Source: a virus
IMG/VR virus record: IMGVR_UViG_3300023082_000036
Span: 1-24,660 of that record
Length of the DNA stretch: 24,660 bases
Direction: 5' to 3' (one strand)
Positions 818-15,857 of this stretch are shown here, piece by piece. Numbering within the stretch: position 1 is the stretch's first letter; every line of letters begins with the position of its first letter. Below the pieces are notes generated by a model, which saw only the letters and a program-made list of their open reading frames with translations, was not told the DNA's origin and did not search any database. Both the position numbers and the translations under genes were made by a program.

Positions 818-832
818 TTCAGCTTCCGAATA

Positions 833-848
833 CTGTATCTATATACAG
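833..848. promoter_or_regulatory. LexA (SOS) box between divergent operons
   Basis: CTGTATCTATATACAG is a perfect CTGT-N8-ACAG palindrome, the LexA operator form of gammaproteobacteria, with an AT-rich centre. It lies 15 nt from the start of the minus-strand 98-aa gene and 59 nt from the start of the plus-strand SRAP gene, so one repressor dimer could cover both promoters. A near copy (ACTGTATC..TATACAGTTA) occurs at 15842-15857. Confidence 0.85.
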
Positions 849-907
849 TTAAACGGGCTGAGGAATTATGGTCAACACTGTATAAACCGATTTTAGACGG
901 ATGACCT

Positions 908-1561
908 ATGTGCAGCCATTACGAAGCCCCGTCCCACCCGCAGATCATGAAGGCGTTCGGTGTTGAGGGTCCGGATCAAGGCAGGCTTGATTTGTGGCCG
1001 ACCTACATGGGCCCCTTCCTGCGGAGACACGAGCGCGAAGAAGGCCAGGACGAGACTGGCCCAGCGCTTGAAATGCTGTCTGGATCGTTCGGTCTGATAC
1101 CTGGCTGGAGCAAGGACACGAAGATTGCCCGGCGCACGTATAACGCCCGATCGGAAACGGCGGCGAAGAAACCATCTTTCCGCAGTGCCTGGAAGAACAG
1201 GCAGCACTGCATTATTCCCGCCGCAGCAATTTACGAACCTGACTGGCGTTCCGGCAAGGCCATCCCGACACGGATCGCCCGGGCAGACGGTGAACTGCTG
1301 GGCATCGCTGGTCTGTGGGAGTGGTGGCGCAATCCAGAAGGCGAGATAGTGCACAGCTATTCCATGCTGACCATCAACGCCGACGACCATACTTTCATGC
1401 GGGATTACCACAAGCCCGACGACGAAAAGCGGATGGTGGTAATTCTGCCGGCAGGACTTTATAACGACTGGCTCGATGCGCCGGCCAGCGACAGCATGGA
1501 ATTCATGCGCCAGTATCCGGCGGATCGGATGGCGGTGGTGCCGAAGGAGAAGGAATCATGA
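908..1561 (+). CDS. SRAP-domain (YedK/HMCES-like) abasic-site processing protein
   Basis: A 217-aa SRAP-family protein. Members form a thiazolidine DNA-protein crosslink with abasic sites in single-stranded DNA through the N-terminal Cys exposed after Met removal. Visible hallmarks are Cys2 (MCSHYE), NARSE at residues 79-83, CIIPA followed by IYE with the conserved Glu at 110, a SMLT motif, and a His close to the RMVVILP strand, in the usual order. Length matches the family. The ATG at 908 is chosen because it places Cys at position 2; another ATG at 901 is out of frame. A LexA box lies 59 nt upstream, fitting the family's alternative name, SOS response-associated peptidase. The next gene overlaps it by 4 nt (ATGA). 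It runs opposite to all structural genes and so is probably transcribed independently, perhaps protecting phage or host DNA during the damage that induces the prophage. Confidence 0.93.
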   Translation: MCSHYEAPSHPQIMKAFGVEGPDQGRLDLWPTYMGPFLRRHEREEGQDETGPALEMLSGSFGLIPGWSKDTKIARRTYNARSETAAKKPSFRSAWKNRQHCIIPAAAIYEPDWRSGKAIPTRIARADGELLGIAGLWEWWRNPEGEIVHSYSMLTINADDHTFMRDYHKPDDEKRMVVILPAGLYNDWLDAPASDSMEFMRQYPADRMAVVPKEKES

Positions 1562-1794
1562 TTCTGGATGAGGGAGAGTTGCCGCCAAGCTATCTGGCAG
1601 AGATAAAGCGCCTGCTGTCGATGATCGAGACAGCGGTTGATGCGGCGGCCGTGCAGGACGTTGGCCGGTATTCGGAGGGGGTGATTCGCGGGATGGAGAT
1701 AACCAAGTCGTTGCGCTCGGCGGACATCGAGGAGTTGTATTTCATCATCGAAGCCTCTATAACGCTGCGGCTTGAGGATTTGGGGTCGCAGTGA
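1558..1794 (+). CDS. 78-aa protein of unknown function, coupled to the SRAP gene
   Basis: A 78-aa, acidic, apparently all-helical protein (heptad-like stretch around residues 14-50) with no membrane segment. Its ATG overlaps the SRAP stop in an ATGA junction, and a purine-rich GAAGGAGAAGGA sequence just upstream provides the ribosome binding site, so it is almost certainly co-translated with SRAP and shares any LexA control. Its stop codon is one nucleotide from the stop of the convergent holin gene, leaving no room for a terminator. The function is unknown. The conserved-looking pairing suggests an accessory to SRAP or an unrelated small accessory protein; the sequence does not decide. Confidence 0.75.
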   Translation: MILDEGELPPSYLAEIKRLLSMIETAVDAAAVQDVGRYSEGVIRGMEITKSLRSADIEELYFIIEASITLRLEDLGSQ

Positions 1795-1795
1795 G

Positions 1796-2386
1796 CTATT
1801 TTTCGGGGCCTTTGACTGTGCCGGGTGTAACGGCGAAATCTGTGATGGCCGCGCTCTGCTTCTGAGACTCGCGCGTCATACCGAAGTAGAAGCCCATGAC
1901 CTCTTTCGTCATCATGAACCAGGTGGACATCACCGAGCCGACAGTGAGCGCAGCCGTCGTATTGGTGATCACTTCCATCGCCCAGCCCGTGATGATTGCA
2001 ACCACGATGAATAGCGCGCCCAGCAGCATAATGAACGTGATGGCCGGGCGAATCAGGTCGCGCGGCTGCTGGCCGGCAAGCTTACGCGCACTGTCGCGGT
2101 CTGCTGCCTCAGCATCGTACTGCGCGTTCGCATACTTCAACTCGTTCTCGGCGGCAGTCACGGCAAGCTGCTGAAGCTGAACCTTGGCATTGATCTGCAG
2201 TTCTTGAATCTTGACCAGAGCATCCGGGTTGCCCAGCAGGACGGAGTTTACGGCTTCAGGGTCATTCGGGACGTTCAGCACGTTGGCGACCATCGCGCCG
2301 ACCATCCCGCCCGCTGGGCCGCCAAGGAGAGTGCCGACCACAGGCGCGGCCTTTCCAACGATATTGCCAATATCCGACCAGTTCAT
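1796..2386 (-). CDS. Holin of the GTA 3-TM type
   Basis: A 196-aa protein with the layout of the GTA_holin_3TM family. It has a glycine- and alanine-rich hydrophobic N-terminal segment (about residues 10-38), a charged helical middle rich in Gln, Ala and Glu (about 60-105), then QPRDLIRPAI and two hydrophobic segments near residues 112-135 and 140-170, with a charged C-terminal tail. Such holins permeabilise the inner membrane so that the cytoplasmic endolysin reaches peptidoglycan. Its ATG overlaps the endolysin stop by 4 nt (ATGA), so the two are translationally coupled. The pairing with a GH108 endolysin that has no signal sequence supports the lysis role. Family membership is by recognition of the pattern, not a search. 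Confidence 0.85.
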   Translation of the reverse strand: MNWSDIGNIVGKAAPVVGTLLGGPAGGMVGAMVANVLNVPNDPEAVNSVLLGNPDALVKIQELQINAKVQLQQLAVTAAENELKYANAQYDAEAADRDSARKLAGQQPRDLIRPAITFIMLLGALFIVVAIITGWAMEVITNTTAALTVGSVMSTWFMMTKEVMGFYFGMTRESQKQSAAITDFAVTPGTVKGPEK

Positions 2387-2901
2387 GCGTCCACCGCCCC
2401 GTATTGAAGGTTGCCCGCTACCCGGTTCATCCAGCCCTTGCCGTAGGTGGCGAAGGTGGACAGCTTGGTCACGAACAGGATGCGCTCTGCGTTCAAGCGC
2501 ATGATCACGTCAGTGACGGACATCGCCTTGACGGCTGCGATTGACATCGGGCCGATCTGGCCGTCATCAGCGACACCTGCCGCACGCTGGAGCATCCGCA
2601 CCGCATTACCGTTGCCGTTGTTCACCGCGATATCGAACAGCTGATAGGCGATGGCTGAGTCGTACTGGTCAGCCTTGGCGCGATCCCAGAAGTCGCGCTT
2701 GTAGATAGCCTTGGCCTGATCGATCGTCAGATTTTTGATGTCGAGGTCTGGATATGACATCGCCGAGATCCCGAACTTCGTACCGTTGCACTGACCCTGA
2801 CCGATCACGCCGGTCGTCCAGTTGCCTCGGTCCTTCGGATCGGCGCCGTATCCACCTTCGTGGCCGACCACCCTTTCAAACGCCAGATCGAATCCGGTCA
2901 T
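2383..2901 (-). CDS. Endolysin, glycoside hydrolase family 108 (muramidase)
   Basis: A 172-aa GH108-type lysozyme that cleaves the glycan strands of peptidoglycan. The catalytic Glu is in HEGGY (Glu15), followed by the family's P-x-D-x-G region (DPKDRG) and a GTKFGIS turn equivalent to the GxTxxGI motif. Between them is an insertion of about a dozen residues containing a Cys. The C-terminal half, with VNNGNGNAVRMLQRA and DGQIGPMS, matches the peptidoglycan-binding domain usually fused to this family. An in-frame ATG nine codons upstream (2928) exists, but I place the start at 2901 because GGAGAG lies just ahead of it and the extra codons would run through the terminator stem. No signal peptide or SAR segment is seen, so it depends on the downstream, overlapping holin. 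Confidence 0.9.
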   Translation of the reverse strand: MTGFDLAFERVVGHEGGYGADPKDRGNWTTGVIGQGQCNGTKFGISAMSYPDLDIKNLTIDQAKAIYKRDFWDRAKADQYDSAIAYQLFDIAVNNGNGNAVRMLQRAAGVADDGQIGPMSIAAVKAMSVTDVIMRLNAERILFVTKLSTFATYGKGWMNRVAGNLQYGAVDA

Positions 2902-2915
2902 CGCCGCTCTCCAAT

Positions 2916-2935
2916 AAAAAACCCGCAAATGCGGG
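2916..2935 (-). terminator. Rho-independent terminator between tail fibre genes and endolysin
   Basis: On the minus strand CCCGCATTTGCGGG (2922-2935, 5-bp GC-rich stem with an AT centre) is followed directly by TTTTTT (2916-2921). It lies after the 132-aa gene and ends about 15 nt before the endolysin start. Late transcripts must therefore read through or be antiterminated to express lysis genes. Confidence 0.8.
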
Positions 2936-2984
2936 CTGTGTACCCGTAGATGCAGGCTCTGTGACTGGATGGTGGAGTCCAGTG

Positions 2985-3383
2985 TTATGCGGGCGTTTCG
3001 TCCGATGCTTGGGCGGCGTCTGGCGTTTCGCCGGCCGGTGCCTCGTCTGGAGTATCAGCTTCCAGTGATGGCGCATTGAGCAGTTCATTCAAGCGATCAA
3101 TCTCAGCCTGAGCAGCCACCAGATTTGCGGTCAGTACCTGATTCTCGATAATCGTCGCCGCATTCACCTCACCAAGCACATCGCTGAGCTTCTGCCCTGA
3201 CTCGCCATCGACCAAAGCCAATTGCTCAGGCGGATTTAGCGTGGTGTTCAGGACGACCCCATCCTTCAGCAGCTGCGTAATCTGAGTGAGGCTTGCTCCA
3301 ATCAGCTTGCCCTTCTTCGGCGCGACTTCGCCGAAACGCATAAGTACTTCGTAAAAAAACGTTTCTTCGGAATATGCGGGCAT
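2985..3383 (-). CDS. 132-aa protein of unknown function downstream of the tail fibre
   Basis: A 132-aa protein with a structured N-terminal two thirds (MPAYSEETFFYEVLMRFGE, then ITQLLKDGVVLN), a short coiled-coil-like stretch around residues 84-104, and a disordered acidic tail rich in Pro, Ala, Glu and Thr. No membrane segment is present. Its ATG is 2 nt after the tail fibre stop, so it belongs to the same transcript. Genes at this position often encode fibre assembly chaperones, minor fibre components or decoration, but I see no motif that identifies one. A terminator follows it, closing the tail part of the operon. Confidence 0.75.
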   Translation of the reverse strand: MPAYSEETFFYEVLMRFGEVAPKKGKLIGASLTQITQLLKDGVVLNTTLNPPEQLALVDGESGQKLSDVLGEVNAATIIENQVLTANLVAAQAEIDRLNELLNAPSLEADTPDEAPAGETPDAAQASDETPA

Positions 3384-3385
3384 GA

Positions 3386-5470
3386 TCAGCTCACTGTGGT
3401 TGTGGTGTTGAGGATTTGCCAGACGGTGCCATTTGATCGGCAGCGCTTGGAACCGCCGGTGGCGTTGGTAACGTCGATTTCGTAGCCGGAATACGCGGAC
3501 GCAGAAGGCAGCGTCGTTAGCGTGTATTGACCGACTTTGACTGGGCCTCCTACGCCAACACTGCCAGGCACCTGCAAGTCGTCAACGCCGTTATCAACGT
3601 TTGATTTAATGCCGATCCTAGCCGACGGGAACACGCTAAGAGCAGTGCTGCGAGAACTGTTTGCAGAGGTAGCTACAAGGAATCTAAAGGTAAGCGGCGT
3701 GTAGGCATCGGTAACGGTTCCTGATACGTAGGCATCTATCGAGCCATTGTTACCGGATCCGTTGTTAGCGTTGTTCCGGGCGGCAAAAAGGAACGACGAG
3801 ACAATGTCGCCGTTCTGTAGGGGCATTGGTGCAGCCAGAGTCCCTCTTGATCTGCCAAGTTGAAAAATAGGGCGATCCGTGTCACTAGCGTACTGATACT
3901 GGAGCACGCCGTTTTGGATTGAGACTCCTGAAGAAAAAATAGGGTTAATAAGTGGCGCTTTCAAATCCAACGCAGTCTGCTGCGGCGCGCTCACAGGTTT
4001 TACGTTGTCGGCCGTGTTATCAGCATTCGCTAGCCCGACATCGGCCTTTGCCAGTACCACTGCGCCCGTCCGCCCGGCTACAGACGTGACCGTGTTGACC
4101 TGAGCGCCAGCAGCAACGCCGGCAAGTTTCGACTTCTCCGCATCCGTGTATGCGTTGGTGTTGGCGTTCGACTCGTACAGCGTCTTGACCTGGGCGGCGG
4201 TGACGCCAGCAGTCGGGCCGTTGTACACCCACTTGCTGTCGTTGTTGTCCCACAGGTACTGGACGACGTCTGCGCCTGAGGCTGGGTCTACGAAGGCATA
4301 GTCGCCGATATTGGCAGTTGGAACCGCAGCTTGAAGCGCAGCCAGGGTGGCGAACATGCCTCGAAAGTGATTCGGATCGAGACCGGCCAACTTAGCTTTT
4401 TCGAGAGTCGTGTAGTTCTCTTGAGAGAGCTGCAGGCCTGCGACCTTGTCCACTTTGTTAGGGTCGGCCGGAGTAATCAGCGGCGTCCCGTCCACGTGCG
4501 CATAGTCGGTCATCGACCACTGAGCTGAGCCAACGGATCTGAATGTAAGGATATCGCCGGCCCGACCCTGGATGTTGGCGCCGCCAAACAGTCCAAAATT
4601 CACACTATTGTTTATCTGCATGGCCATACCGAGCACGACTTTTCGGTATGAGCCAGTAGGGGCTGCAGCCATGCCAGTGAGCGGGCCAGCGCCAACTACA
4701 GTGATAGTGTTTGATCCTGCAACCGCGGAAGCTCCAATGATTGGGTCGCTGACATCCCAAGATGATTGAGGCGCCTCGTTTAATGCGCTGGTAAGCGTCC
4801 CGCCAGAAAAAACGGGCGGCGTAGATGGTGTAACCCACGCCAGCGCGCCGGAGACGACCGTAAGAACTCGACCTTCAGCACCGATCGCGAGTCGTGACGC
4901 CGCTCCTGCTGCACCGCCTACCAATAGATCCCCCGCCGCAGTCATTGGATTCGCAAAACCCGTAGCGATTGCCCAGGCCAAGGCATTACCGATTCGGGTG
5001 AGCACCATCCCTTCGCTGGTAGGTCCAGGCAAACGTGTTGGAGCGCCAGCCACGCCAGCCACAATCATGTCCCGGATTGTGGTCATTGGGTTGCTGAAGC
5101 CGCCACCGCTTCCGCTGGCTATCGTCCAGGCTGAACCGTTGAAGCCGTAACGAGCCGGCTGACCCGAGCTGTCCAATTCATCCTGAACTGCTACCTCCCA
5201 CCCAGACTTCGCCGACACAAACTGCCATGCGCCGGTAGTAGTGAGCCAATATGCGAGCTGGTTTTCATGTCCAGCCCAAAGGCCTGTAGCCGGAGAAGCA
5301 ACGATGTATAGAGACTCGTCACCTGGCGTTGATGGCGGCGCAGCGAGATCCTTGTCTACCACCGTTGCTTGAACCAACTGATTCAACTGCGCAAAAGTGA
5401 TGTTGGCCAGCGTCTGATTAGCCGCTGCGTTCTGCAGCAGCTCAAGTGCCAGCTTGTTGGTTGCCGTCAT
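3386..5470 (-). CDS. Tail fibre / receptor-binding protein with N-terminal DUF2793
   Basis: A 694-aa fibre. Residues about 40-110 carry a DUF2793-like module (GDESLYIV, TGLWAGHENQLAYW, GAWQFVSAKSGW), common at the base of fibres attached to GTA-type tail tips. Two imperfect repeats of about 40-45 residues follow (NPMTTIRDMIVAG and NPMTAAGDLLVGG, each ending in an LAW). Further on are short fibre repeats with YTTLEKAKLAGL and YTDAEKSKLAGV, and a TSVAGRTGAVVLAKADVGL module frequent in phage fibres. The C-terminal 200 residues are Ser/Asn/Thr-rich and probably form the trimeric tip that contacts the host. The ATG overlaps the stop of the tail-tip hub gene by 4 nt. The C-terminus is the part expected to vary between relatives. 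Confidence 0.88.
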   Translation of the reverse strand: MTATNKLALELLQNAAANQTLANITFAQLNQLVQATVVDKDLAAPPSTPGDESLYIVASPATGLWAGHENQLAYWLTTTGAWQFVSAKSGWEVAVQDELDSSGQPARYGFNGSAWTIASGSGGGFSNPMTTIRDMIVAGVAGAPTRLPGPTSEGMVLTRIGNALAWAIATGFANPMTAAGDLLVGGAAGAASRLAIGAEGRVLTVVSGALAWVTPSTPPVFSGGTLTSALNEAPQSSWDVSDPIIGASAVAGSNTITVVGAGPLTGMAAAPTGSYRKVVLGMAMQINNSVNFGLFGGANIQGRAGDILTFRSVGSAQWSMTDYAHVDGTPLITPADPNKVDKVAGLQLSQENYTTLEKAKLAGLDPNHFRGMFATLAALQAAVPTANIGDYAFVDPASGADVVQYLWDNNDSKWVYNGPTAGVTAAQVKTLYESNANTNAYTDAEKSKLAGVAAGAQVNTVTSVAGRTGAVVLAKADVGLANADNTADNVKPVSAPQQTALDLKAPLINPIFSSGVSIQNGVLQYQYASDTDRPIFQLGRSRGTLAAPMPLQNGDIVSSFLFAARNNANNGSGNNGSIDAYVSGTVTDAYTPLTFRFLVATSANSSRSTALSVFPSARIGIKSNVDNGVDDLQVPGSVGVGGPVKVGQYTLTTLPSASAYSGYEIDVTNATGGSKRCRSNGTVWQILNTTTTVS

Positions 5471-8400
5471 AGAGAGACCTCAAGGGGATAGCCGCGCCCG
5501 ACGACGGACGAAAGCTGATAAACGCGGAACAGGATTGAGGGTTGTACTGACCCGAAGTCGGCTACCTGGTCGGTGGCCGAATACGAAAAACTTCCGTCCG
5601 CACTCAGAAGCGTCCGCTTTATGGTTGATCCCGAAACGACCTCCGCTTGGAAGCTGAGCAGGGTCTCACCCACTGGCGCATCCATCCCGTTCGCCCACCA
5701 GGACGAAGACAGCCGACTACGGCGCTGAACCGAGAACAACAGCGAACCATCAGAGCTTCGAAACCTCTTCGGATATACCGGACTCAACGGTTCGAGATTG
5801 ACGCCCTTGTATGTAAACGGGACATCAGGGGCACTATCAACATCAGCACCAAGCGTCACACCTCGGTATACCTTTGGAGCTAACAAGGCCTCCAAAGAGA
5901 GATCGATGCTGATATTGTCAGGATCATCAAGCAGCACGAAATAGTCGTTCGGCTGATGAAGACCTGTCGCCCACTCAGTGCCTTTTTCTCCGCGGACAAA
6001 GCCACTGACGAGGTAAGAGCCATCAGCCTGGAGGCTTGCACTCTGGAACCTTACAATCTCCCATCGCCCATCCAATCCATAAGCCACGTAATGCATGCCC
6101 GAAAGCATTTGATCGCGAGTGATGCTGTCGAGCTCGCCAGCTATCAGGTTTACACTGAGGGTGCGTTGATCGACTAATGTCGCGGCGCTTGCTGGTAGCG
6201 CGTTTACGCACAATCCCAGCGTGCTCATCCCGCTGAAGCCTTGGAGGCTTTTCCACGTCTGCCCATTGTCATCCGTTTGCACCAGCATCGCGCCTGTCCA
6301 TGAATCTGTGAACCCGACCATCGCCCCAATGAAGCCCGGAGAGTTCTGGAGGTTTTCAGAGATCAGCGGAATATCCAGCGGCACGAAAAGGCTTGGACCG
6401 GGGACCCCGATTGTTTCAAGGGGTGGAGGCGGCTCGTCCGCGACGGCAAGGCTGGTGTAGAGCGAAGCCTTGTTAGGCGTTGCAGTACAGTCAAGCGTGC
6501 CATCGGTGTCATAGTCGATCTTGCCAATGCGCATCTCAAGTGAGGCCCATGGCGTCAGGATGGTGATGACATCGGTAGGCTCTAAATAAAGGTAGGCAGG
6601 CGGTAGCTTGAAGTTGAATGAAGAACGCTCCAGCCATGGCAGCAGCGTTAGTATTTCGGCAGTTTGTAGTGCTTCGGTTGCCGTCATCACAATAGGGATT
6701 TCGACGTCTTCCTTGCCCACTGCGCGGGTAGTAAGCCGCTCAAAGGATTGGTTTGAGACGGAATATTCCCGCGCTGCATCCAGGTACTTAACGGTGGTCT
6801 TAACCGGAAGTTGGGTATCCATTTCGCGGGCTTCAGTTATCGCCTCTGATGACGATCCTGATGTATTGGCAATTAGATCGCCCCAAGGGGCCGTCAAAAC
6901 TGGATCAGTTCCACGCGGAATAAATTTGGCCTGATATCCGGATTGGATTACGTCAAACCGAAATGCTGTTTGCAGCGGTTCGATAGCGCTGCGGATTGTG
7001 CCGCCCTGTACTGCGTACCCCCGCACAGCGCCTGTTAAATAGCTGGTGTCTATGTCTGCGGCTTTGATCAAATCAGAGGTAAGGACCTCCTCTTCGATAA
7101 CGCGTGAAAGCGATGGTGGATCATTGATGATCTGGGCTGTGCGGGTAAATATCGCTACCTCAGTGCCGGATGCGATGTAGGCCACTCCATCAACCGCCAA
7201 GATAGATGGGCTACAGAATTGGTGATAGAGCTGATCAGACATGCGACTGATGATCGACATCGTTCCGTTGTCGATTTCATAGACACACACGTCGCCCCGG
7301 CCGGCGCCATATGCAGTCCACAAGTACTGCGCGCCATTCTCCAGGCAGCACGAGCTGTAGTTGTACTGCGCGGTCCGGCCAAACCCAATCTCATAAATGC
7401 TGACCGGGGAGCCAAGCATGCCAGACGCGATGAGCGTCCCGGCAGCGTCCATCACATGGTAACGGGTACCAGTTTCTGCACCGGTCACGCCTGTTGTCAG
7501 ACCTGTTATAGCGACAACTGATTGCCCATCCGGGCTAAGCGCAAGCCCGTATAGATATTGGTCTGATGGAAGGTTGTCCTGATAAATGGAAGGCGAAATG
7601 ACTTTGGCGATTCCAAAACGCTGAGACAGCTTGCTGCTATCCACATCTACAGGGTCATCACCCATAAACCCCGCGTGGAGAATTGTTCCGGTAGGCGCGG
7701 GGAGTATTGGCCCAGTACCGGCTTTTGCTGCAAGTTTGCAGTCCAGTGTGAAGGTATAACCTGCCCCATTATCATCAGTAACAACAATGACGCCATCAGC
7801 GCTGACAACGTATGGCTGAGGTCCGCCGGTTTGGGCATTTGCGAAACTTACCCCAGAGGTCGCGCCCGCAACCTTGCGGATTGACTGGTAATCGGAAACC
7901 TCAACCACTTCGAATTTGAAGTTTGCCGCCTGTAGTGTGTTTCCATAGTCTTCAAGCTGAAAGTCATCAAAAACAACATATGCCAGACCGCGAAAAGACG
8001 GCGTATTACCAACGCCCCGTGCGGCCTCATAACGAGGGTCGGGAAGTTGGTCATCAGTCCCAAGGTGGATGCGCATGCCTTTGGCTGATTTGTTGCTTGC
8101 AATAATCGTCGACACGTCGCCGCTACCGGCGTTGTAAATCAGCTTATCTCCGCACCATATCCGTGCGATGCCGTCGATGGGGCCTTCACAGATACCCAGG
8201 GCAAAGGTTGCCGAATACGTAAATGTTACGTTCGGAGTGCTTGCGGCAGCACCACCCTTGCCTCCGCTCTTCTTCTTGTGCCTTGTTTCCTTGAGTTGAT
8301 TGTTCTCCAGCCAGATTAGATTCCCGGCTATTCCGATGGTCCCGTGAACCCGGCCGATATCTACCCCATAGCTTGATGTCTGGACTGTTAGATCGCCAAT

Positions 8401-8954: not shown

Positions 8955-9841
8955 CAATTTCTCCCTACTTCTGAGTACTGGGAAGGCGTTGGTACATCAG
9001 GGAAGGCGCCGTGGTTCTTGGCGTTGTCCCACTTGGCGATGCAGTCTTCGGCCAGGCGCTTACGGCACCCAGGGATCATTTCGTACTGGTCGCCAACGGC
9101 AGGCAGATAGCTGAATGCTTCGTGCACTTCCATGCGCCCCGCCGAGTAGGACTTGATCTCAAGCGGTTTGAGGAAAGCGTTCTGCCCAGTGATGAACCGA
9201 ATTGCCCCATTGCCGAAATAGTCATCAGGCTCGGTGCGCGCGCTATCGGTGACGACGTACTGCGACTCCACGGCTGTAGCGGTGCCGACGACCTTGTATG
9301 AACCCATCAAAGGGCCATCTGGATTCGCGCGCGGCCCTGTGCAGCGCGAGCGCCTGGCGCTAATCATGGTTCCATCAAGTGACTGATCGAACAGCGTGTA
9401 ACCGCACATGTTCCCGTAAGAGCGCGCGGTTTCCTGCGACAGCACATCGATCAACCCCATCAACTCGGCCTTGTAGGACCGATCCTCAGTGATCGTGGTC
9501 TTGCCCCAAAACATCAGCGCGAGCGGCTCTTCATCCTCAACCGGATTAGCCCAGCTGGTCGCGAAGAGATACACCCTGGCGTTGTCGTAAACGCCAGAGG
9601 TCAGATCAGCACGACTAACAGCGCCGGTCGAAAGAATGCCTTCTAGGTCTACGCTTGCGGCCGCAAGTGAGTTTTCTGACCCAAGGCCGGAAAACTCATA
9701 CCCGTTTTCAGTGATGTAGGTATCTCCATTGCTCATTGTTATGGCAATTGGATAGCCAGCGAACCTCAGCACCGGGGCAGAAATAGGCACAATTCGGATG
9801 CAATAAATCCGCGTCTGCCAATCAGCGACGTGAGCTTTCAT
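8954..9841 (-). CDS. Tail-tip protein, DUF2163/phage_BR0599 family (GTA ORFg13-like)
   Basis: A 295-aa protein. The N-terminal half matches DUF2163 (DWQTRIYCIRI, then GDTYITENGYEFSG and VDLEGILSTGAVSRADL). The C-terminal half ends with the cysteine motif of the phage_BR0599 domain, GCRKRLAEDC followed by KWDNAKNHGAFPDVP. A further CGYTLFDQ and SRCTGP pair sits in the middle. In gene transfer agents this protein forms part of the hub between the distal tail ring and the megatron, and metal or disulphide coordination by the Cys residues has been discussed for the family. It lies between the DUF2460 and NlpC/P60 genes, the canonical order. Confidence 0.88.
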   Translation of the reverse strand: MKAHVADWQTRIYCIRIVPISAPVLRFAGYPIAITMSNGDTYITENGYEFSGLGSENSLAAASVDLEGILSTGAVSRADLTSGVYDNARVYLFATSWANPVEDEEPLALMFWGKTTITEDRSYKAELMGLIDVLSQETARSYGNMCGYTLFDQSLDGTMISARRSRCTGPRANPDGPLMGSYKVVGTATAVESQYVVTDSARTEPDDYFGNGAIRFITGQNAFLKPLEIKSYSAGRMEVHEAFSYLPAVGDQYEMIPGCRKRLAEDCIAKWDNAKNHGAFPDVPTPSQYSEVGRN

Positions 9842-9849
9842 GGGCAGCC

Positions 9850-10710
9850 TTATGGATTGAGGATTTCTAGAATTTCGATGCCGGAGGCGCTGAGTACGCC
9901 GCTTGCGATGAATGCTGAGTCAATCGATGAATCAAAACGACACGGGACATCAAATTCGGCGCCCGCAGTAACCGACTCCCCAGTCAAAGGGCGAGTTTGT
10001 ACGCTGCCAGCGCTTGCGTAGTCAGTGAATCCTGATGAGTTGATGCCAACCGTGACATTCGAGCCATTAACTGCGGTGATCACCGCGCGCAGGCCGTTTA
10101 TCTGCGCCATCCCCGCCACGCCACTAATGGCGACCGACTGATTGATACCAAGGTTATGACCTGGCACCGCAATCGTAGTGGTCTGGCCCTTGGTGATGCC
10201 GGTTATTGCGAAGGCTTGATTTCCTGACATCGTGACCAGCCCCGTAGTGACATCAATTGCCCACTGGGACGCCGGGTAAGCGGCTCCACCCACGCCGACC
10301 TTTACCGTGCCCGCGACCGGCTTACGCAGCCTGCGACGAGCACACAGCGGATCAGATGGGTCTCCGTACCAACGCATCAACTGATAGACGCCAGGAGCAA
10401 CTAACAGCATGGGCTGGTCGGTGGCCGTAGGCGGCAGAGTGAACTTGTTCGTCGTAAAGTCTTTGAAATCCTTTACTCGAAACCCACGAAGGGAGCCGTT
10501 ACACCGAGAGTAAAGATCGAGAACCTTATCCCGGACAAAGTCTATCTGTCGCGCATAAGAGATATCGTAACTGAGCTTCACAAATGGATGTTTCAGCGAC
10601 CTATATTCGTCCCCTCCTACGGTGGAAGTTACTTCGGTAGCGTGCTCTTCCGAAAAGCTTCCACCGTAATCAATAGCCACAGGAAGCCTTTCTTCAAGGA
10701 ACTGAGCCAT
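9850..10710 (-). CDS. Distal tail protein, DUF2460 family with an inserted beta domain (GTA ORFg12-like)
   Basis: A 286-aa protein. The N-terminus MAQFLEERLPVAIDYG followed by YDISYARQ, a region rich in Arg/Phe (GSLRGFRVKDFKDF) and RWYGDPSDPLCARRRLRKPV matches DUF2460, the distal tail ring component that caps the tube. Unlike the usual length of roughly 210 residues, it contains an extra segment at about residues 165-250 (ITGITKGQTTTIAVPG, then VAISGVAGM, ITAVNGSNVTVGI) resembling ubiquitin-activating-E1 FCCH-like beta folds often inserted in phage structural proteins. The family's C-terminal part then resumes (SAGAEFDVPCRFD). The ATG overlaps the tape measure stop by 1 nt. Confidence 0.85.
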   Translation of the reverse strand: MAQFLEERLPVAIDYGGSFSEEHATEVTSTVGGDEYRSLKHPFVKLSYDISYARQIDFVRDKVLDLYSRCNGSLRGFRVKDFKDFTTNKFTLPPTATDQPMLLVAPGVYQLMRWYGDPSDPLCARRRLRKPVAGTVKVGVGGAAYPASQWAIDVTTGLVTMSGNQAFAITGITKGQTTTIAVPGHNLGINQSVAISGVAGMAQINGLRAVITAVNGSNVTVGINSSGFTDYASAGSVQTRPLTGESVTAGAEFDVPCRFDSSIDSAFIASGVLSASGIEILEILNP

Positions 10711-13700
10711 CAGCTATATCTCCCGGTCTGTTGGATTGCTCGGCTTATTTGTCGAGCTTGCTGGGCCGTGGCCTTCTTAGATTCGCTAGCGCTGGACATG
10801 CCATTGATATTGCTGTTCAGCGTCACGTTGTAGGTCGGGCCTGCTGGACGGGACAAGGCACTCGGCGCGCTTGCCGTTATTGATGGTGATGAATTAGCAC
10901 TGAAACTGCCGCCGCGAATGGCTTCCAGCGTGTCTACGCCGATTCTTGATGTGGCTTTAGCATCGAATACGTATTCTCCTCGATGCACCGGCCCGGCAAC
11001 CTCGTCTGCCGACCCATTGCCGGTGTACCCGCCGGCCTTGAAACCAACGCCGGAGATAGCTGCGATGTTTGCTGCCGTGGCAACTCCGGCCGATATGGCA
11101 AGTGCAACACCAACCGGATAAGGAGGCACCGCCAAGGCATTCTGAATTGCTGTAAACCCTGAAACAGTGGCTTGTGCAATGGCGGCGGCCTTACCAATGG
11201 CGCCAAGGTTCTTGTTCCCGGACTGGCTTAGAGACGTCATATTCCCGAAGAACTCGCCAGCGCTTGTGAGGACTGCTTGGTTCTTTGCCGTCTCGATCTT
11301 TGTCTGCGCCTCACGCCCCTGCTTGTTTATGTTGTTGACGCGATCGGTATACGTTTCCTCGTTAATAGCCTTCAGGTCGAGATAGTCTTTCTGCTTGTCT
11401 AGCTCGTTTTTCCTCCAGCGCTCTACCTTGCGCGACTCTTCGTTCAAGCGGCTAATTTCGCTGGTTGGCCCGCCGACTGAAGCGTCTAGGCCTGTCACGC
11501 TAGGGGCCTGACTAACACCCTCAACGGTTCCGGGCTTTTGGCCATACTTCAGGTTCACGTCCCTGATCTTCTGGAGGGTATCAAGCCGCTTCAGTGCCTC
11601 GACGTTGCCCTGCTTCTCGTACTCCAGACGCTGTTGAGCTTCGGCAAGCCCTGACTGCGCAGCGTTGGCTGCAAGTGCCTGCCCTGTAAGTTTAAGCAGC
11701 TCGATACGGTCCTTCTCCGCCTCTCTTACATTGTCTGCTGCTGCCTTCTGATCGCTGATCTGTTTCTCGATCGCGGCATTGCGTTTGAGCTGTGCGGTAA
11801 TCAGGTCCTGATTGGCGAGTAACGACTTCTGATCGGCAGTGAGGGTTTTCTTCTCCTTGATGTCAGCAAGCTGTTGCTCCCACTTGATCAGCGCTTGAGC
11901 CTGGGTGCCAATCTTTTCAGCCCCAATCGCCTGTTTCTCGATCACAGCCGCTTGTTGAACAAGAACTGCATACTGTTCGCGCGCGGAATCAAGGGCCTTC
12001 ATGCCGGCGTCTTCCGTGTACGCCTTGGCCTTTGCTGACTTCGGATCTTTATTGCGATCAGATATTCCCTTCGCAAGCTGGTCGTATGCGCCACCAGAGA
12101 AGTTCTTGCCGTCGTAGTCCACGCCAGCCAGTAGGTCCGATTTCTTGCCCGTTTTCTCGGCAGTTTCGTATAGGTCGAAAAACTGGGTCTTCAGATCCTT
12201 TAGCGCCTTTGTTCTTTTTGCCAAAGGGCTGATGTTATCCATCTGCCCATCAAGGTTTTTCTGAGTTTCAATGAGGCGCTGATTTGCTTTGTCGAGCTCT
12301 GATTGCTCTTTCGCCTGCTGCGATCCAAGCTTGATTTTGTTTTCGAGCGCGTCGGCCTCGCCCTGATACCCAGCAATGACTTCATCGCGGGACTTCAGTC
12401 CATTGCTGAAAAGCGATGGCACGGCTGAGGCAATGGGATTTTCTTTGATGAACTGGATTTGACGTCGGATGATCTCCAGTTTTTTCGTATCGTCAGGGAA
12501 AATCTCGCCACGAACCTCGGCGTACGCACGCTTGGTCGCTTCCTTGATGTCGTCCCAGTCGCGTTCGATCTCCGAAAGGGATTCCCTATAGCGCTTCAGT
12601 CGAGCCTGGGCATTTTGGTTTAGCGTCTCGCTGAGCGAGTCCAGCGCGCCCTGCGCATCGCCGTTATCCTCGATCGCCTTGATCGACTGATACTGTTCAT
12701 AAGTGATGAGCCCGTACTGCTGGCTGATGCTTTCCGCCGCCGTGGTAGCCGAAGCCCCCATAGACGCGAAACCCTTTGCCACATCGGCGGCACCCTTGCC
12801 GGTAAATGAGGCGATAGCTGCTGACGCCTCTGTGAGGTTCAGCAATTGATCAGCACTTACTTTCCCGCTTTCGGCAAGAGCAAGCGCGGCGTCGCGCGAT
12901 CCGCCAAAGTTACGAGTAACCTCTGCCGATTCGCGCGCGATTGCCTGAAGGCCTGATGCAGTGACGCCAGCGGCATTGTTGCCGGCGAAGAGAGCCTTGT
13001 TGAAGGCTGAGGCCTCCCGCTGACCGTCTATGTACGCGTAGACGATCGCCCCAATGGCCGCCGCAGCAATACCGGCCGGCACCGCGACCGCGGCCAAGCT
13101 TGATGCGGAAATCTTTGACTCTGCACCAAGCTGGGTGATTGCCCGGACGCCACTACCGATGTCGCCATTCGACAGGGCGTTGCCCAGCTGCATTACGTTT
13201 TCTTGCGCTTGTCGAGTGTTCAGGCCGAGGCGGGCCATGGCTGATGCGCCCTTGTCCGTTTCGGCATATTTCCCATCGATCTTCGCTAGAGCAGCATTGT
13301 ATTGCTGCTGGCTGATTCTCCCGGAATCCAGCGCCTTGCCTAAGCTTTCGACCTGGCCGTCAAGCTTTGACAACTTAGCCTGAGCGGGGTCGATAGCCCC
13401 CAGCAGTGAGTTCAGGGCTTTCTGTTCATCCAGCGTAGACTTGACCAAAGAGACTTGATGCTTGTCTAGCTGGGCTGTGATCTTGGTAAATTCTGACTCG
13501 TTGTATGCGCCGACTTTTGTCAGCCTAGCCAGTGTTTCGCGCTGCTTTCCAAGCTCTTGCGTTGAGCGAGCGCCTTGGGCAAGGGTCTTTTCGAGGGCGT
13601 TAATTTCGCCCATCAAGCCGGTTGTCGATTTCTCTGCCCTGTCGCCCGCTGCGGTGAGCTTTTCTAAATCGGTGGTCGCCTTATCGGCACCAGTGGTGTC

Positions 13701-13730
13701 AACTCTGATGCCAAGCTCGGCGATGTTCAT
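10710..13730 (-). CDS. Tail length tape measure protein
   Basis: A 1006-aa protein, the second largest in the window. It has a long N-terminal coiled coil, an Ala/Ile-rich hydrophobic segment near residues 210-235 (AVPAGIAAAAIGAIVYAYI), an extended helical middle rich in Lys, Glu and Gln, and a second hydrophobic alanine-rich stretch near 860-910. The end is glycine-rich with GYTGNGSADEVAGPVHRGEYVF, a signature of lambda-H-like tape measures. It sets tail length and is thought to be ejected into the cell envelope. At about 0.15 nm per residue the tail would be near 150 nm (inference). GGAGAAAAC precedes the ATG. A terminator lies between it and the chaperone gene upstream. Confidence 0.95.
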   Translation of the reverse strand: MNIAELGIRVDTTGADKATTDLEKLTAAGDRAEKSTTGLMGEINALEKTLAQGARSTQELGKQRETLARLTKVGAYNESEFTKITAQLDKHQVSLVKSTLDEQKALNSLLGAIDPAQAKLSKLDGQVESLGKALDSGRISQQQYNAALAKIDGKYAETDKGASAMARLGLNTRQAQENVMQLGNALSNGDIGSGVRAITQLGAESKISASSLAAVAVPAGIAAAAIGAIVYAYIDGQREASAFNKALFAGNNAAGVTASGLQAIARESAEVTRNFGGSRDAALALAESGKVSADQLLNLTEASAAIASFTGKGAADVAKGFASMGASATTAAESISQQYGLITYEQYQSIKAIEDNGDAQGALDSLSETLNQNAQARLKRYRESLSEIERDWDDIKEATKRAYAEVRGEIFPDDTKKLEIIRRQIQFIKENPIASAVPSLFSNGLKSRDEVIAGYQGEADALENKIKLGSQQAKEQSELDKANQRLIETQKNLDGQMDNISPLAKRTKALKDLKTQFFDLYETAEKTGKKSDLLAGVDYDGKNFSGGAYDQLAKGISDRNKDPKSAKAKAYTEDAGMKALDSAREQYAVLVQQAAVIEKQAIGAEKIGTQAQALIKWEQQLADIKEKKTLTADQKSLLANQDLITAQLKRNAAIEKQISDQKAAADNVREAEKDRIELLKLTGQALAANAAQSGLAEAQQRLEYEKQGNVEALKRLDTLQKIRDVNLKYGQKPGTVEGVSQAPSVTGLDASVGGPTSEISRLNEESRKVERWRKNELDKQKDYLDLKAINEETYTDRVNNINKQGREAQTKIETAKNQAVLTSAGEFFGNMTSLSQSGNKNLGAIGKAAAIAQATVSGFTAIQNALAVPPYPVGVALAISAGVATAANIAAISGVGFKAGGYTGNGSADEVAGPVHRGEYVFDAKATSRIGVDTLEAIRGGSFSANSSPSITASAPSALSRPAGPTYNVTLNSNINGMSSASESKKATAQQARQISRAIQQTGRYS

Positions 13731-13745
13731 GTTTTCTCCAGGCGC

Positions 13746-13764
13746 AAAAAAACCGCCTCAGCGG
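13746..13764 (-). terminator. Rho-independent terminator between chaperone ORFs and tape measure
   Basis: On the minus strand CCGC-TGAG-GCGG (13753-13764) is followed by seven Ts (13746-13752). It lies 17 nt after the stop of the DUF1799 ORF and just before the tape measure start. A partial terminator here would lower tape measure expression compared with the tail tube and chaperone. Confidence 0.75.
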
Positions 13765-13780
13765 ATTCGTTATCAGTGAG

Positions 13781-14089
13781 TTATGAGCGGTCTTCTCTGC
13801 TTTCTGCCATCACTGTTAAAGCGGCAGATTCCATTGCTCGGACATCATCGAAGACTTTCGTTCGATCGCTAACCTTGATCCCGGACAGCCTCATGACAAC
13901 AGGAAGCGACACGTAATCAAGGCCCGAAGCACCACCCGGCCCGCTACGCCACTGGGTCGTCATCGACTCAAAGACGCAGAAGCTGGGCCAGTTGTCCGGC
14001 CACACGTCACACTCTTCCTCGGGTATCTGGTCAAGGGTGAGCCCGAACGCGCCAACCTCGGCGGCTGTCGGACCGGGCTCGTAGAGCAT
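13781..14089 (-). CDS. DUF1799 protein, probable -1 frameshift extension of the tail chaperone
   Basis: A 102-aa ORF recognised as DUF1799 (GLTLDQIPEEECDVWPDNWP, WRSGPGGASGLDY). In siphophages the gene after the tail assembly chaperone is normally made as a -1 frameshift fusion, like lambda gpGT, and binds the tape measure and tube subunits. Here this frame is -1 relative to the upstream chaperone and is open back through GGGAAAC at the chaperone's last codons. The 7-codon join would read L-T-A-A-A-R-M, giving a fusion of about 235 aa. The annotated ATG has no good Shine-Dalgarno, which also favours frameshift expression over independent initiation. Confidence 0.85.
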   Translation of the reverse strand: MLYEPGPTAAEVGAFGLTLDQIPEEECDVWPDNWPSFCVFESMTTQWRSGPGGASGLDYVSLPVVMRLSGIKVSDRTKVFDDVRAMESAALTVMAESREDRS

Positions 14090-14113
14090 CCGTGCAGCCG
14101 CTGTTAGTTTCCC
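14061..14113 (-). promoter_or_regulatory. Programmed -1 ribosomal frameshift signal: GGGAAAC plus downstream stem-loop
   Basis: On the minus strand the last two sense codons and stop of the chaperone are GGA AAC TAA. The heptamer G-GGA-AAC (14107-14113) is in the correct phase for tandem slippage to GGG AAA. After a 5-nt spacer comes a stem of 7 bp (GCGGCTG at 14095-14101 pairing with CAGCCGC at 14061-14067). Within its 27-nt loop, CGGA can pair with TCCG and GCTC with GAGC around a TAC loop, giving a nested hairpin. Spacing and phase fit known stimulatory structures. Confidence 0.82.
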
Positions 14114-14487
14114 AGACGGGCCTTCGTATAGGCGTCGCCGTAGCCCTGGACGATAGCGTCTGAAACGCCCATGCAGCTCCTTACCAGATCAGCAATCGAC
14201 TCATCGCTGAACTCGTCTTCGAAACCCCAGCCGGTGACCAGATCCTTGATCTGCGCAACGCCATTTTCGATTTCGGCAGACGTCACCTCGGCGAGTGATG
14301 GCTCCTGATTCTTGAAGCGCTCGCGCAATGCTTCGGCCCGCGCGTTCCAATCGTCGTACAGGGCTGCCATCTGCTCGCGATCACGATGCTTGAAGGTGAA
14401 CGGCACTTTGATAGGCTTGCCACCTACCTGCGGAATAGCCACCTCGACCGTAAAGGTGGCCTTCTGGGCAATTCTAAACTTTGGCAT
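14104..14487 (-). CDS. Tail assembly chaperone (lambda G analogue, DUF1789-like)
   Basis: A 127-aa helical protein beginning MPKFRIAQKATFTVEVAIP, with HRDREQMAALYDDW and an acidic C-terminal helical half, matching the phage tail assembly chaperone family once called DUF1789. It should coat the tape measure during tail assembly and not be part of the virion. It sits directly after the tail tube gene, as in lambda (V then G). The frameshift signal covers its final codons (LGN then stop), so the shifted product keeps practically the entire chaperone. Most ribosomes would stop and make the 127-aa form. Confidence 0.88.
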   Translation of the reverse strand: MPKFRIAQKATFTVEVAIPQVGGKPIKVPFTFKHRDREQMAALYDDWNARAEALRERFKNQEPSLAEVTSAEIENGVAQIKDLVTGWGFEDEFSDESIADLVRSCMGVSDAIVQGYGDAYTKARLGN

Positions 14488-14496
14488 TGTCAGTCC

Positions 14497-15150
14497 TTAC
14501 GCGGCAGCAACATAGCGGGCGATACGGCTGGTCAGCGAGATGGTGATCACTCGCGTCATCAGTGCGTTACGACCGAGTGTCGGCGTCGAGGTGATCGACA
14601 CGAACGCGTTGTAGAGGATCGACGAGCCATCCGGCAGGTTCAAGCGCAGCACTCGGGCTTCCTTGTCCTCGTCAGCAGCCTCCACCACCGACACATAGGG
14701 CAGCAGAGGATCATCCGCTACGGTCAACGTCATGCTGATCGGGTTTTTGTTGGTTGGAATTTGCTTGTCTTCGTCGTCTTCCAGGAAGCCGACAGTGAGG
14801 AACTGCTGCTCGCCGCCAGTAGACGCGACTTCAGTGATCTGCGGGATCTGAACCCAGCTATCAACCGAACGCGCGCTGCCTGCTCCGGAACCAGTCGTGT
14901 ATACCTGAGTGTTGGTGGTGTTCACGCCTTCCAGTGAGAAAGTACCAGTAGCCGCATCAATAACTCGTACGGCACGGTCATTCAGCCTCGACCAACCAGA
15001 GGCCATGACAACAACGTCGCCGTCATCAAAGTCGGATCCCGCAGCGGTCGCCACGGCAGGGTTCGCATTACTGATGGCGGTGACCAGCGCTAGCGCCGAA
15101 TAGCTCGCTGCGATTTCCATGGTTGCGCCGTTGGGCAATTTGAAAGCCAT
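14497..15150 (-). CDS. Major tail tube protein
   Basis: A 217-aa protein beginning MAFKLPNGATMEIA, with a Gly/Ala/Ser/Thr-rich beta composition. The order and motifs (DFDDGDVVVMASGWSRLNDR, FSLEGVNTTNTQVY, SWVQIPQITEVASTGGEQQF, then LPDGSSILYNAFVSI) match the siphophage tail tube family that polymerises around the tape measure. The C-terminal domain, with repeated VTISLTSR-type strands, resembles a small Ig-like or tube-decoration extension, though I am less sure of that. AGAGGA precedes the ATG. A hairpin terminator separates it from the HNH gene upstream, and the tail chaperone follows 9 nt after its stop. Confidence 0.88.
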   Translation of the reverse strand: MAFKLPNGATMEIAASYSALALVTAISNANPAVATAAGSDFDDGDVVVMASGWSRLNDRAVRVIDAATGTFSLEGVNTTNTQVYTTGSGAGSARSVDSWVQIPQITEVASTGGEQQFLTVGFLEDDEDKQIPTNKNPISMTLTVADDPLLPYVSVVEAADEDKEARVLRLNLPDGSSILYNAFVSITSTPTLGRNALMTRVITISLTSRIARYVAAA

Positions 15151-15176
15151 GTTGATTTTCCTCTGTGCAGAAATGA

Positions 15177-15198
15177 CAAAACCCGCTCGAGGCGGGTT
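15177..15198 (-). terminator. Probable terminator after the HNH endonuclease gene
   Basis: On the minus strand AACCCGC-CTCGA-GCGGGTT (15180-15198) is a perfect 7-bp stem continuing into TTTTG. The T-run is short, so strength is uncertain. It sits between the HNH stop and the tail tube start, where it would end the independent HNH transcript. Confidence 0.6.
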
Positions 15199-15254
15199 CT
15201 GGTTTGCCCAACGGGCGGGTTAGTTTGGCGAATGGAAACTGCCGTTTATTAACG

Positions 15255-15761
15255 TTAAATGGTGCAACCTTCGTGGATCAGGCGCTTTCTTTCCAAATAG
15301 GCGAGATGCGCGGTCTTAGGGTCGTCAAAAATCCCGATGTATATGGATTTTCTGTCTTTCTGTATTTTCGCTACCCATCTCCCTTGGTGTGCATGTACGC
15401 CAAGATAGCCAGAGCTACCAAACTTTCTTGGAAGTCGAATATTTTGCACATTCACTCGGCCGACCACGTCCCTTAGGTTAACAATGCGGTTGTTTGTCCT
15501 GTCCCCATCGATGTGGTCGATTTCACCGCAGGGCCAATCGCCGTACGTGATAAGCCAGGCTACTCGATGAGCTAGGTAACGCTGCGAATCCAAGGCCACT
15601 CGGTGATACCCCTTGAGCCCGCCACCATTAACAAGAAAATCAGCCCTATCACCCACCTTGTGGCGTTGGGCGGTTCTAATTTTCCGTTTAAATATCCCAG
15701 TTAGTGGATCGTAATCAACAAGCTCATTAACGCGATGAAACGCTATAATCGGCTCGGCCAT
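15255..15761 (-). CDS. Free-standing HNH endonuclease with C-terminal AP2 DNA-binding domain
   Basis: A 168-aa protein of the HNH-AP2 homing endonuclease type. The middle carries the HNH_3 pattern (LAHRVAWLITYGDWP, EIDHIDGDRTNNRIVNLRD) with the metal-binding His in DHIDGD. The C-terminal 50 residues form an AP2-like domain (SGYLGVHAHQGRWVAKI, IYIGIFDDPKTAHLAYLE). The frame could extend to a TTG at 15824, but ATG 15761 has GGAG seven bases upstream and is preferred. It interrupts the usual order tail terminator - tail tube, is visibly more AT-rich than its neighbours, and has its own LexA box and -10-like element upstream and a terminator downstream. This marks it as a mobile insertion with independent expression. 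No intron is seen. Confidence 0.9.
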   Translation of the reverse strand: MAEPIIAFHRVNELVDYDPLTGIFKRKIRTAQRHKVGDRADFLVNGGGLKGYHRVALDSQRYLAHRVAWLITYGDWPCGEIDHIDGDRTNNRIVNLRDVVGRVNVQNIRLPRKFGSSGYLGVHAHQGRWVAKIQKDRKSIYIGIFDDPKTAHLAYLERKRLIHEGCTI

Positions 15762-15826
15762 TAAAGACTCCATCCAGTCTGCTTGGTTAGGGCCGGACTG
15801 TGTTGGTAGCACGTTCCGGCTCAATC

Positions 15827-15857
15827 ATTTTAGCATCTCCACTGTATCCCTATACAG
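15827..15857 (-). promoter_or_regulatory. LexA box with SOS promoter for the HNH endonuclease
   Basis: CTGTATCCCTATACAG at 15842-15857 (plus strand) is a perfect CTGT-N8-ACAG LexA operator, immediately after the tail terminator gene's stop. On the minus strand TAAAAT (15827-15832) is a good -10. The -35 position (about 18 bp upstream) falls inside the box, as TGTATA, so LexA binding would block polymerase. The transcript would lead into the HNH gene about 60 nt downstream. Confidence 0.8.

What the first reader, a model, noticed from the sequence alone, without database searches (positions are those of the whole stretch)
833..15857. Two near-identical LexA boxes put a repair protein and an endonuclease of the same prophage under apparent SOS control
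Perfect CTGT-N8-ACAG palindromes occur at 833-848 and 15842-15857, sharing ACTGTATC..TATACAGTTA including flanking bases. The first lies between the SRAP operon and a divergent unknown pair; the second covers the -35 of a promoter reading into the HNH-AP2 gene. SRAP proteins cap abasic sites; HNH enzymes make breaks. A small LexA-driven phage sub-regulon, independent of late transcription, would express both while the prophage is being induced. I know of SOS control of phage genes in general, but not of this pairing.
Basis: partly seen in the sequence, partly recalled or inferred. Interest (0 to 1): 0.75.

Follow-up and report, generated by a model that had tools for sequence, protein, structure and literature searches.

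The report
Phage nuclease cassette behind SOS switch
This fragment of a Pseudomonas-type temperate phage carries two genes, a DNA-damage protein and a mobile DNA-cutting enzyme, each behind its own copy of the switch that bacteria use to turn genes on when their DNA is damaged, and in other phages the cutting enzyme and its switch appear to move together.

Summary
Both sites are perfect 12/12 CTGTAT-N4-ATACAG. None arose in 1,500 shuffles of the window, and whole Pseudomonas genomes hold only 2-7 each, in front of SOS genes such as yebG, imuA and umuDC. LexA control of the SRAP operon is well supported but expected. The same box heads SRAP or umuDC-SRAP units in other Pseudomonas loci and in all five Burkholderia phages examined, and SRAP is a known SOS-associated family. 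The HNH box is the new part. About 95 related tail clusters have neither gene nor box at the tail-terminator/tail-tube junction. Two other lineages have a ~50% identical HNH there with a box at the same place. Between two diverged phages, identity rises to 96-100% from the box to the HNH end. Further HNH cassettes elsewhere show structural-gene stop, box, TAAAAT-like -10, a hairpin at the predicted start, then HNH. Best reading: a LexA-gated, homing-type HNH cassette that moves with its own SOS promoter and sits independently of the SRAP unit. The proposed SRAP/HNH pairing as one sub-regulon is not conserved. LexA binding, SOS induction and cleavage are untested.

The parts
46..102 (-). Probable att site: 57 bp identical to Pseudomonas phage Aurca01 and 98% identical in several P. 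aeruginosa and Moraxella phages; contains the sequence of a tmRNA (ssrA) 3' end
   Evidence: megablast hits H15-H20; exact 23-mer at 47-69; identification as ssrA rests on my own knowledge of the tmRNA 3' end (ARAGORN finds no complete gene)
271..528 (-). Second gene of the divergent pair, unknown function (phrog_19595)
521..817 (-). First gene of the divergent pair, 98 aa, unknown function (phrog_5560); box 1 lies 16-31 bp upstream of its ATG; homologue in the same divergent position in L004 and L275
833..848 (.). LexA box 1, CTGTATCTATATACAG (12/12), 60-75 bp upstream of SRAP
908..1561 (+). SRAP (YedK/HMCES family) protein, 217 aa, starts Met-Cys
   Evidence: PF02586 E=4.9e-37; PDB 1zn6 E=2e-69
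1558..1794 (+). 78-aa gene overlapping the SRAP stop by 4 bp (phrog_36962); also behind SRAP in L004
14497..15150 (-). Tail tube protein, right-hand neighbour of the insertion
   Evidence: PF08813, phrog_584
15177..15201 (-). Intrinsic terminator (10-bp stem) behind HNH; the same hairpin is present in the empty sites
15255..15761 (-). HNH endonuclease (HNH_3, weak C-terminal AP2), 168 aa
   Evidence: PF13392 E=1.3e-14, phrog_99 E=6e-52; PADLOC homing endonuclease model E=2e-5
15765..15780 (-). Predicted second leader hairpin (AGACT/AGTCT), 3 nt before the start codon and next to the GGAG ribosome-binding site
15792..15820 (-). Predicted first leader hairpin, beginning at the predicted transcription start
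15827..15835 (-). Extended -10 element TGCTAAAAT, conserved as TGGTAAAAT in L126 and L153
   Evidence: not reported by the generic promoter scan
15842..15857 (.). LexA box 2 (CTGTATAGGGATACAG read towards HNH, 12/12), directly behind the tail-terminator stop codon; left edge of the inserted cassette
15858..16274 (-). Tail terminator protein, left-hand neighbour of the insertion
   Evidence: PF13554, phrog_179

Best explanation
The window holds two separate accessory units of a Pseudomonas-type temperate phage, each repressed by host LexA and released by RecA-driven LexA cleavage. Unit 1, at the prophage end next to the presumed ssrA att site, is an SRAP operon and a divergent gene pair around one LexA box; SRAP would cap abasic sites during damage. 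Unit 2 is a mobile cassette between the tail-terminator and tail-tube genes: LexA box, extended -10, 5' hairpin leader, HNH(-AP2) gene, closed by the terminator already present at the site. In the uninduced lysogen LexA keeps the nuclease off. When SOS begins, and co-resident prophages excise and replicate with RecA abundant, the nuclease is made and can cut cognate sites in phages that lack the cassette, so that recombination copies it in. Shown here by sequence: operator quality, genomic rarity and conservation; conserved promoter spacing; empty and occupied sites; box and gene moving as one block. Inferred: LexA binding, damage induction, cleavage, homing and its timing.
For: Operators: both 12/12, none in 1,500 shuffles; 2-7 per whole Pseudomonas genome, in front of yebG, imuA and umuDC-like genes. 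SRAP: box in the same place in phage L004 and in L015/L017, and at the head of the operon in L005 and L007; 11-12/12 boxes 66-85 bp before SRAP in five of five Burkholderia phages. HNH: empty site without gene or box in L008 and L010 and in about 95 of 112 tail-cluster rows. Occupied site in L126/L153 with HNH about 50% identical, box 11/12 at the same position, conserved TGG-N3-TG-N-TAAAATGAT. The box-plus-promoter pattern with up to 2 mismatches hits 1 of 399 Pseudomonas genomes, this locus; the box-plus-HNH-core pattern likewise. L126 against L153: identity 96-100% from the box to the HNH end, 72-91% immediately outside. Third lineage L313/L314 at the same junction, box 11/12. Other junctions: L322 (12/12), L319, L315/L317, L321/L323/L325/L326, each with a TA[AT]AAT element 0-7 nt behind the box and a hairpin starting 0-2 nt from the expected transcription start.
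Against: No binding, expression or cleavage data. Most HNH relatives have no box: 0 of 80 in viral contigs near the gene. The raw count of box-plus-HNH-core hits (10) is not far above a control palindrome (6), so the case outside this lineage rests on box quality and shared anatomy, and the boxes of L315 (9/12) and L321 (10/12) could be weak or chance. The only other occupied, intact-looking site in this phage group is one lineage (L126/L153), and its L153 copy has Asp to Tyr next to the catalytic His. Homing has not been shown, and the endonuclease target is unknown.
Confidence: 0.7

Rival explanations
1. The two boxes are operators of the phage's own repressor (CI- or LexA-like), not of host LexA, so the genes belong to the phage's lysogeny circuit.
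For: The two boxes are near-identical, including flanks, and the immunity region lies outside this fragment, so the repressor's operators cannot be compared.
Against: The same motif stands in front of chromosomal SOS genes in several Pseudomonas genomes and before SRAP in unrelated Burkholderia phages; CTGT-N8-ACAG is the documented beta/gamma-proteobacterial LexA motif (PMC3323433; P. aeruginosa CTGN2TN7CAG in PMC9578287).
Confidence: 0.08
2. Only box 1 matters; box 2 is a chance palindrome created where the HNH gene inserted.
For: It lies exactly at the insertion edge; 80 HNH relatives lack it.
Against: 12/12 match not seen in shuffles; in L126/L153 and L313/L314 the half-sites stay while the spacer has changed (CTGTATAGGGATACAG, CTGTGTTTGCATACAG, CTGTACGGACATACAG) at the same distance from a stop codon and, in L126/L153, from a conserved -10.
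Confidence: 0.08
3. SRAP and HNH form one functional pair: the nuclease makes breaks or nicks and SRAP protects abasic or processed DNA during prophage induction.
For: Both have perfect boxes in the same phage.
Against: They do not co-occur in relatives: no SRAP in 9 of 10 LexA-HNH records, several of them fragments, and no HNH of this kind in 6 SRAP records; they lie 14 kb apart in different accessory slots.
Confidence: 0.07
4. The SOS-expressed HNH is mainly a weapon against competing prophages or incoming phages (interference), or amplifies the host's SOS state as P1 Ref does, rather than a device for copying itself.
For: HNH nuclease tied to SOS; P1 Ref, an HNH nuclease, enhances SOS (PMC4713147). 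Homing and interference need the same cut.
Against: The cassette behaves as a mobile block at one junction and matches homing-endonuclease models (phrog_99, PADLOC HEase). No sequence link to Ref was tested.
Confidence: 0.15

Closest known systems
SRAP / YedK / HMCES (PF02586) with its SOS gene neighbourhoods (Aravind et al. 2013, PMC3765255)
   Same: SRAP next to umuDC or behind LexA boxes; SRAP in prophages was already noted there
   Different: That paper argued from gene neighbourhoods and proposed a damage-sensing peptidase for phages; here LexA operators are shown in front of phage SRAP operons in Pseudomonas and Burkholderia phages
Free-standing HNH(-AP2) homing endonucleases of phages (phrog_99)
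   Same: Domain make-up, intergenic insertion behind structural genes, presence/absence at a fixed site, movement as a short block
   Different: Here they carry a LexA operator over their own promoter; I found no report of this in the open literature searched
SOS-controlled mobile-element enzymes: integron integrases, ISCR transposases (PMC13393415)
   Same: A mobility enzyme held off by host LexA through CTGT-N8-ACAG over the promoter and released by DNA damage
   Different: Those are integrases or transposases, not site-specific homing-type nucleases inside phage late operons
Bacteriophage P1 Ref (PMC4713147)
   Same: Phage HNH nuclease linked to SOS and RecA
   Different: ref is held by the P1 C1 repressor, not LexA, and cuts only RecA-bound DNA; no homology tested

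Membership tests
LexA regulon of beta/gamma-proteobacteria | CTGT-N8-ACAG palindrome close to the local Pseudomonas form | tested here: met
   Both boxes 12/12; same motif before yebG, imuA, umuDC in six Pseudomonas genomes
LexA regulon of beta/gamma-proteobacteria | Operator overlaps or adjoins the promoter | tested here: inconclusive
   Box 2: conserved extended -10 right behind it, -35 would fall in the box. Box 1: no clear sigma-70 promoter found
LexA regulon of beta/gamma-proteobacteria | Operator conserved upstream of orthologues | tested here: met
   SRAP: L004, L015, L017, five Burkholderia phages, operon-head boxes in L005, L007, L014, L016, L018. HNH: L126, L153, L313/L314
LexA regulon of beta/gamma-proteobacteria | LexA binding and damage-dependent expression | not testable with these tools
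   Needs gel shift and reporters
SRAP family | PF02586 domain over the gathering score, N-terminal Met-Cys, Asn/Glu/His active-site motifs | tested here: met
   128 bits against 27.1; sequence MCSHYE..., YNARSE, AIYEPDW, NADDH; identity of the active-site motifs is from own knowledge of YedK/HMCES
SRAP family | Covalent capping of abasic sites | not testable with these tools
   Biochemical assay needed
HNH homing endonuclease | HNH catalytic motif | tested here: met
   PF13392 54 bits; IDHIDGDRTNNRIVNLR intact
HNH homing endonuclease | AP2 DNA-binding domain (of the HNH-AP2 subgroup) | tested here: inconclusive
   PF00847 E=0.0009, below the gathering score
HNH homing endonuclease | Empty and occupied alleles of one site, cassette more similar than its flanks | tested here: met
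HNH homing endonuclease | Cuts the empty allele and is copied into it | not testable with these tools
   Needs cleavage and mixed-infection assays
P1 Ref-like RecA-dependent nuclease | Cleaves only RecA-bound DNA | not tested
   Considered from PMC4713147 only; no sequence comparison made

The most novel reading that the evidence does not exclude
A widespread class of phage homing-endonuclease cassettes carries its own LexA-repressed promoter with a structured 5' leader, so that homing is timed to the SOS response, the moment when several prophages in one cell are excised and recombination is high. The cassette thus uses the host's damage signal as a cue for its own spread and for competition between prophages.
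Probability: 0.4. Interest if true: 0.78.

Novelty: new variant of a known kind. Interest (0 to 1): 0.6.

Why it matters
Free-standing homing nucleases are usually thought of in lytic phages, with timing set by early, middle or late phage promoters. If temperate phages place them under host LexA, the cassette is silent in the lysogen, where cutting a resident prophage would be costly, and active when prophages are induced together. That would add homing to the mobile-element functions tied to SOS (prophage induction, integron integrases, ICE transfer, ISCR transposases), and would predict that DNA-damaging antibiotics raise gene conversion between co-resident prophages, which can be tested with simple reporters. 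The SRAP part is ordinary by comparison: it adds operator-level evidence to a known SOS association.

Tried and rejected
Chance origin of the boxes: rejected by shuffles and whole-genome counts. A functional SRAP/HNH pair: no co-occurrence. A claim that HNH genes in general carry LexA boxes: not supported; 0 of 80 relatives in viral contigs, and raw pattern counts are 10 against 6 for a control palindrome. Generic promoter scan found nothing at either box; the HNH -10 rests on conservation between lineages. No Rfam match for the leader (the only weak hit, DnaX element 14.7 bits against a cut-off of 35, is chance). The L321 cassette was sought in E. coli genomes and in phage records without a hit. 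No solved structure resembles the HNH by sequence. SRAP in Stenotrophomonas phage S1 and in SPBc2 shows no CTGT-N8-ACAG box; from own knowledge those hosts' LexA proteins read other motifs. Own-host LexA scan: impossible, the record is a virus fragment. MAFFT on the leaders was too poor for a covariation count, so no covariance model was built.
Full report
What was claimed.

Observation. Exact CTGT-N8-ACAG occurs only at 833-848 and 15842-15857. That pattern alone is weak evidence: 66 of 1,500 shuffles give two hits. But both sites are perfect for the longer CTGTAT-N4-ATACAG, which never arose in 1,500 shuffles. Six Pseudomonas genomes of 4.4-6.7 Mb hold 2-7 each, with zero for the reversed control. 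The genes next to those chromosomal sites include yebG, imuA, umuDC-like and SRAP genes, so the pattern does read the SOS regulon (gene names assigned by me from the printed sequences). The published motifs agree: CTGT-N8-ACAG for beta/gamma-proteobacteria (PMC3323433) and CTGN2TN7CAG for P. aeruginosa (PMC9578287).

Setting. The record is a 24,660-base virus fragment. Late genes run on the minus strand: terminase, portal, head, tail, endolysin. Nearest named relatives are Pseudomonas phages through the terminase genes. Position 46-102 matches a probable att site inside the 3' end of ssrA. The SRAP unit thus sits at the prophage end, the HNH unit in the middle of the tail genes.

SRAP unit. 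The protein is a clear SRAP. In phage L004 the whole arrangement recurs: phrog_5560-type gene, box, SRAP, 78-aa gene, with half-sites kept and spacer changed. In chromosomal Pseudomonas loci L015 and L017 the box lies between umuDC and SRAP; in L014, L016 and L018 it heads a umuDC-SRAP operon. L007 and L005 have the box before another gene of the SRAP operon. In L275 a different SRAP subfamily stands by the same divergent gene and a box. Five of five Burkholderia phages (KS9, BgManors32, Magia, Mana, AP3) have an 11-12/12 box 66-85 bp before SRAP. With the strict pattern about half of the chromosomal Pseudomonas SRAP loci have a box within 2.2 kb upstream, so the link is strong but not universal. 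SRAP and SOS, phages included, were connected by Aravind and colleagues from gene neighbourhoods (PMC3765255). This part is a new member of a known kind.

HNH unit: empty and occupied sites. In relatives L008 and L010 the tail terminator and tail tube genes are separated by about 75 bp with a transcription terminator, no HNH and no box. A search with the tail tube family gave 112 rows; about 95 are empty in this way and none of those has a box of 10/12 or better anywhere in its locus. Eleven rows hold other inserts, none with a box, so the junction is a general landing place for accessory genes. Two lineages hold an HNH: the window, and L126 (a Pseudomonas genome) with L153 (a virus record). 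Their HNH proteins are about 50% identical to the window's. Both have the box directly behind the tail-terminator stop, then TGG-N3-TG-N-TAAAATGAT. Box half-sites and the -10 stretch are conserved (12/16 and 15/18 positions) against 53% for the HNH coding DNA. A third lineage, L313/L314, has an HNH of the same group at the same junction, with a box of 11/12 eight bases behind the terminator gene, in a phage whose tail terminator is only 42% identical; its HNH reading frame is shifted, so that copy is probably broken.

HNH unit: movement. L126 and L153 differ by 9-14% to the left and 12-28% to the right, but from the box to about 690 bp later they are 96-100% identical. The rise starts at the box, so box and gene move together.

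HNH unit: other junctions. A scan for box, about 320 nt, HNH core gave further HNH(-AP2) genes. L322 (12/12 box), L319, L315/L317 and the L321 group show the same anatomy: in L322, L319 and the L321 group the box sits 2-12 nt behind the stop of an upstream phage gene; in all of them a TA[AT]AAT element follows 0-7 nt behind the box, and a stem-loop begins 0-2 nt from where transcription should start, followed in most by a second stem-loop near the ribosome-binding site. Sequences differ widely between these leaders while the layout stays. Caution: the control palindrome TGTC-N8-GACA at the same spacing gave 6 hits against 10, so the count itself proves little; none of the control hits shows the anatomy. 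In 399 Pseudomonas genomes the box-plus-core pattern hits only the L126 locus. Most HNH relatives have no box, and some of those (L099, L063) seem to have the two-hairpin leader without it. The leader may therefore be older than LexA control.

Mechanism. Established pathway: RecA on single-stranded DNA triggers LexA self-cleavage, and operators are freed. Applied here, SRAP and HNH are off in the lysogen and on under damage, independent of phage late transcription for HNH, which has its own promoter-like element and the site's terminator. The most economical role for HNH is homing into empty junctions of other phages when prophages are induced together; interference or SOS amplification are alternatives. 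SRAP and HNH are not a conserved pair.

What is shown and what is not. Shown by sequence: operator quality, rarity, conservation, empty/occupied alleles, block-wise movement. Inferred: LexA binding, induction, promoter use, cleavage, homing. Literature searches in open papers found no LexA-controlled homing endonuclease, but subscription papers were not searched.

Verdict. Observation confirmed; LexA control well supported; pairing not supported; a LexA-gated mobile HNH cassette is the part worth testing.

Noticed in passing
15765-15821 (-) and leaders in L126, L319, L322, L315, L321, L326, L313; also L099 and L063 without a box: HNH leaders share a two-hairpin layout despite different sequences: a first stem-loop starting at or within 2 nt of the predicted transcription start and, in most, a second one at the ribosome-binding site (folding z about -1.3 to -3.8). 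No Rfam family matches. Possible conserved RNA element of HNH cassettes.
   Followed up: partly
L271, L273, L274, L276, L277, L278 (box at 752-5414 of the records, mostly within 1.5 kb of one end): Related Pseudomonas prophages often carry a LexA box near one end, 17-20 bp before a 114-126-aa gene family of unknown function (MNID..WLGCPTPLEMYKHQ..); L279 and L268 have a 246-253-aa gene there, L280/L281 a UmuD-like protein. A LexA-controlled slot at the prophage end may be general.
   Followed up: partly
L275 (box at 1312): A phrog_5560 homologue and a LexA box stand by a different SRAP subfamily (MCGRIAQYHG..), as if SRAP had been exchanged while neighbour and operator stayed.
   Followed up: no
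junction between tail terminator and tail tube: L170, L182, L213, L227, L229, L248, L258, L260, L263: The junction where HNH sits in the window holds other small accessory genes in relatives, none with a LexA box.
   Followed up: partly
L153 HNH; L313/L314 HNH: In L153 the Asp before the catalytic His is Tyr (IYHINGV); in L313/L314 the HNH frame is shifted. Both copies look inactivated, as expected of cassettes decaying after spread.
   Followed up: no
833-880 and L004, L015, L017: Besides the box, ACAGTTAA and a downstream GGTCAA are kept between these SRAP promoters; the role of GGTCAA is unknown.
   Followed up: no
L333 (record of L321), 1-633: A SRAP gene starts at the very edge of this record, perhaps host yedK next to the prophage; not checked.
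   Followed up: no
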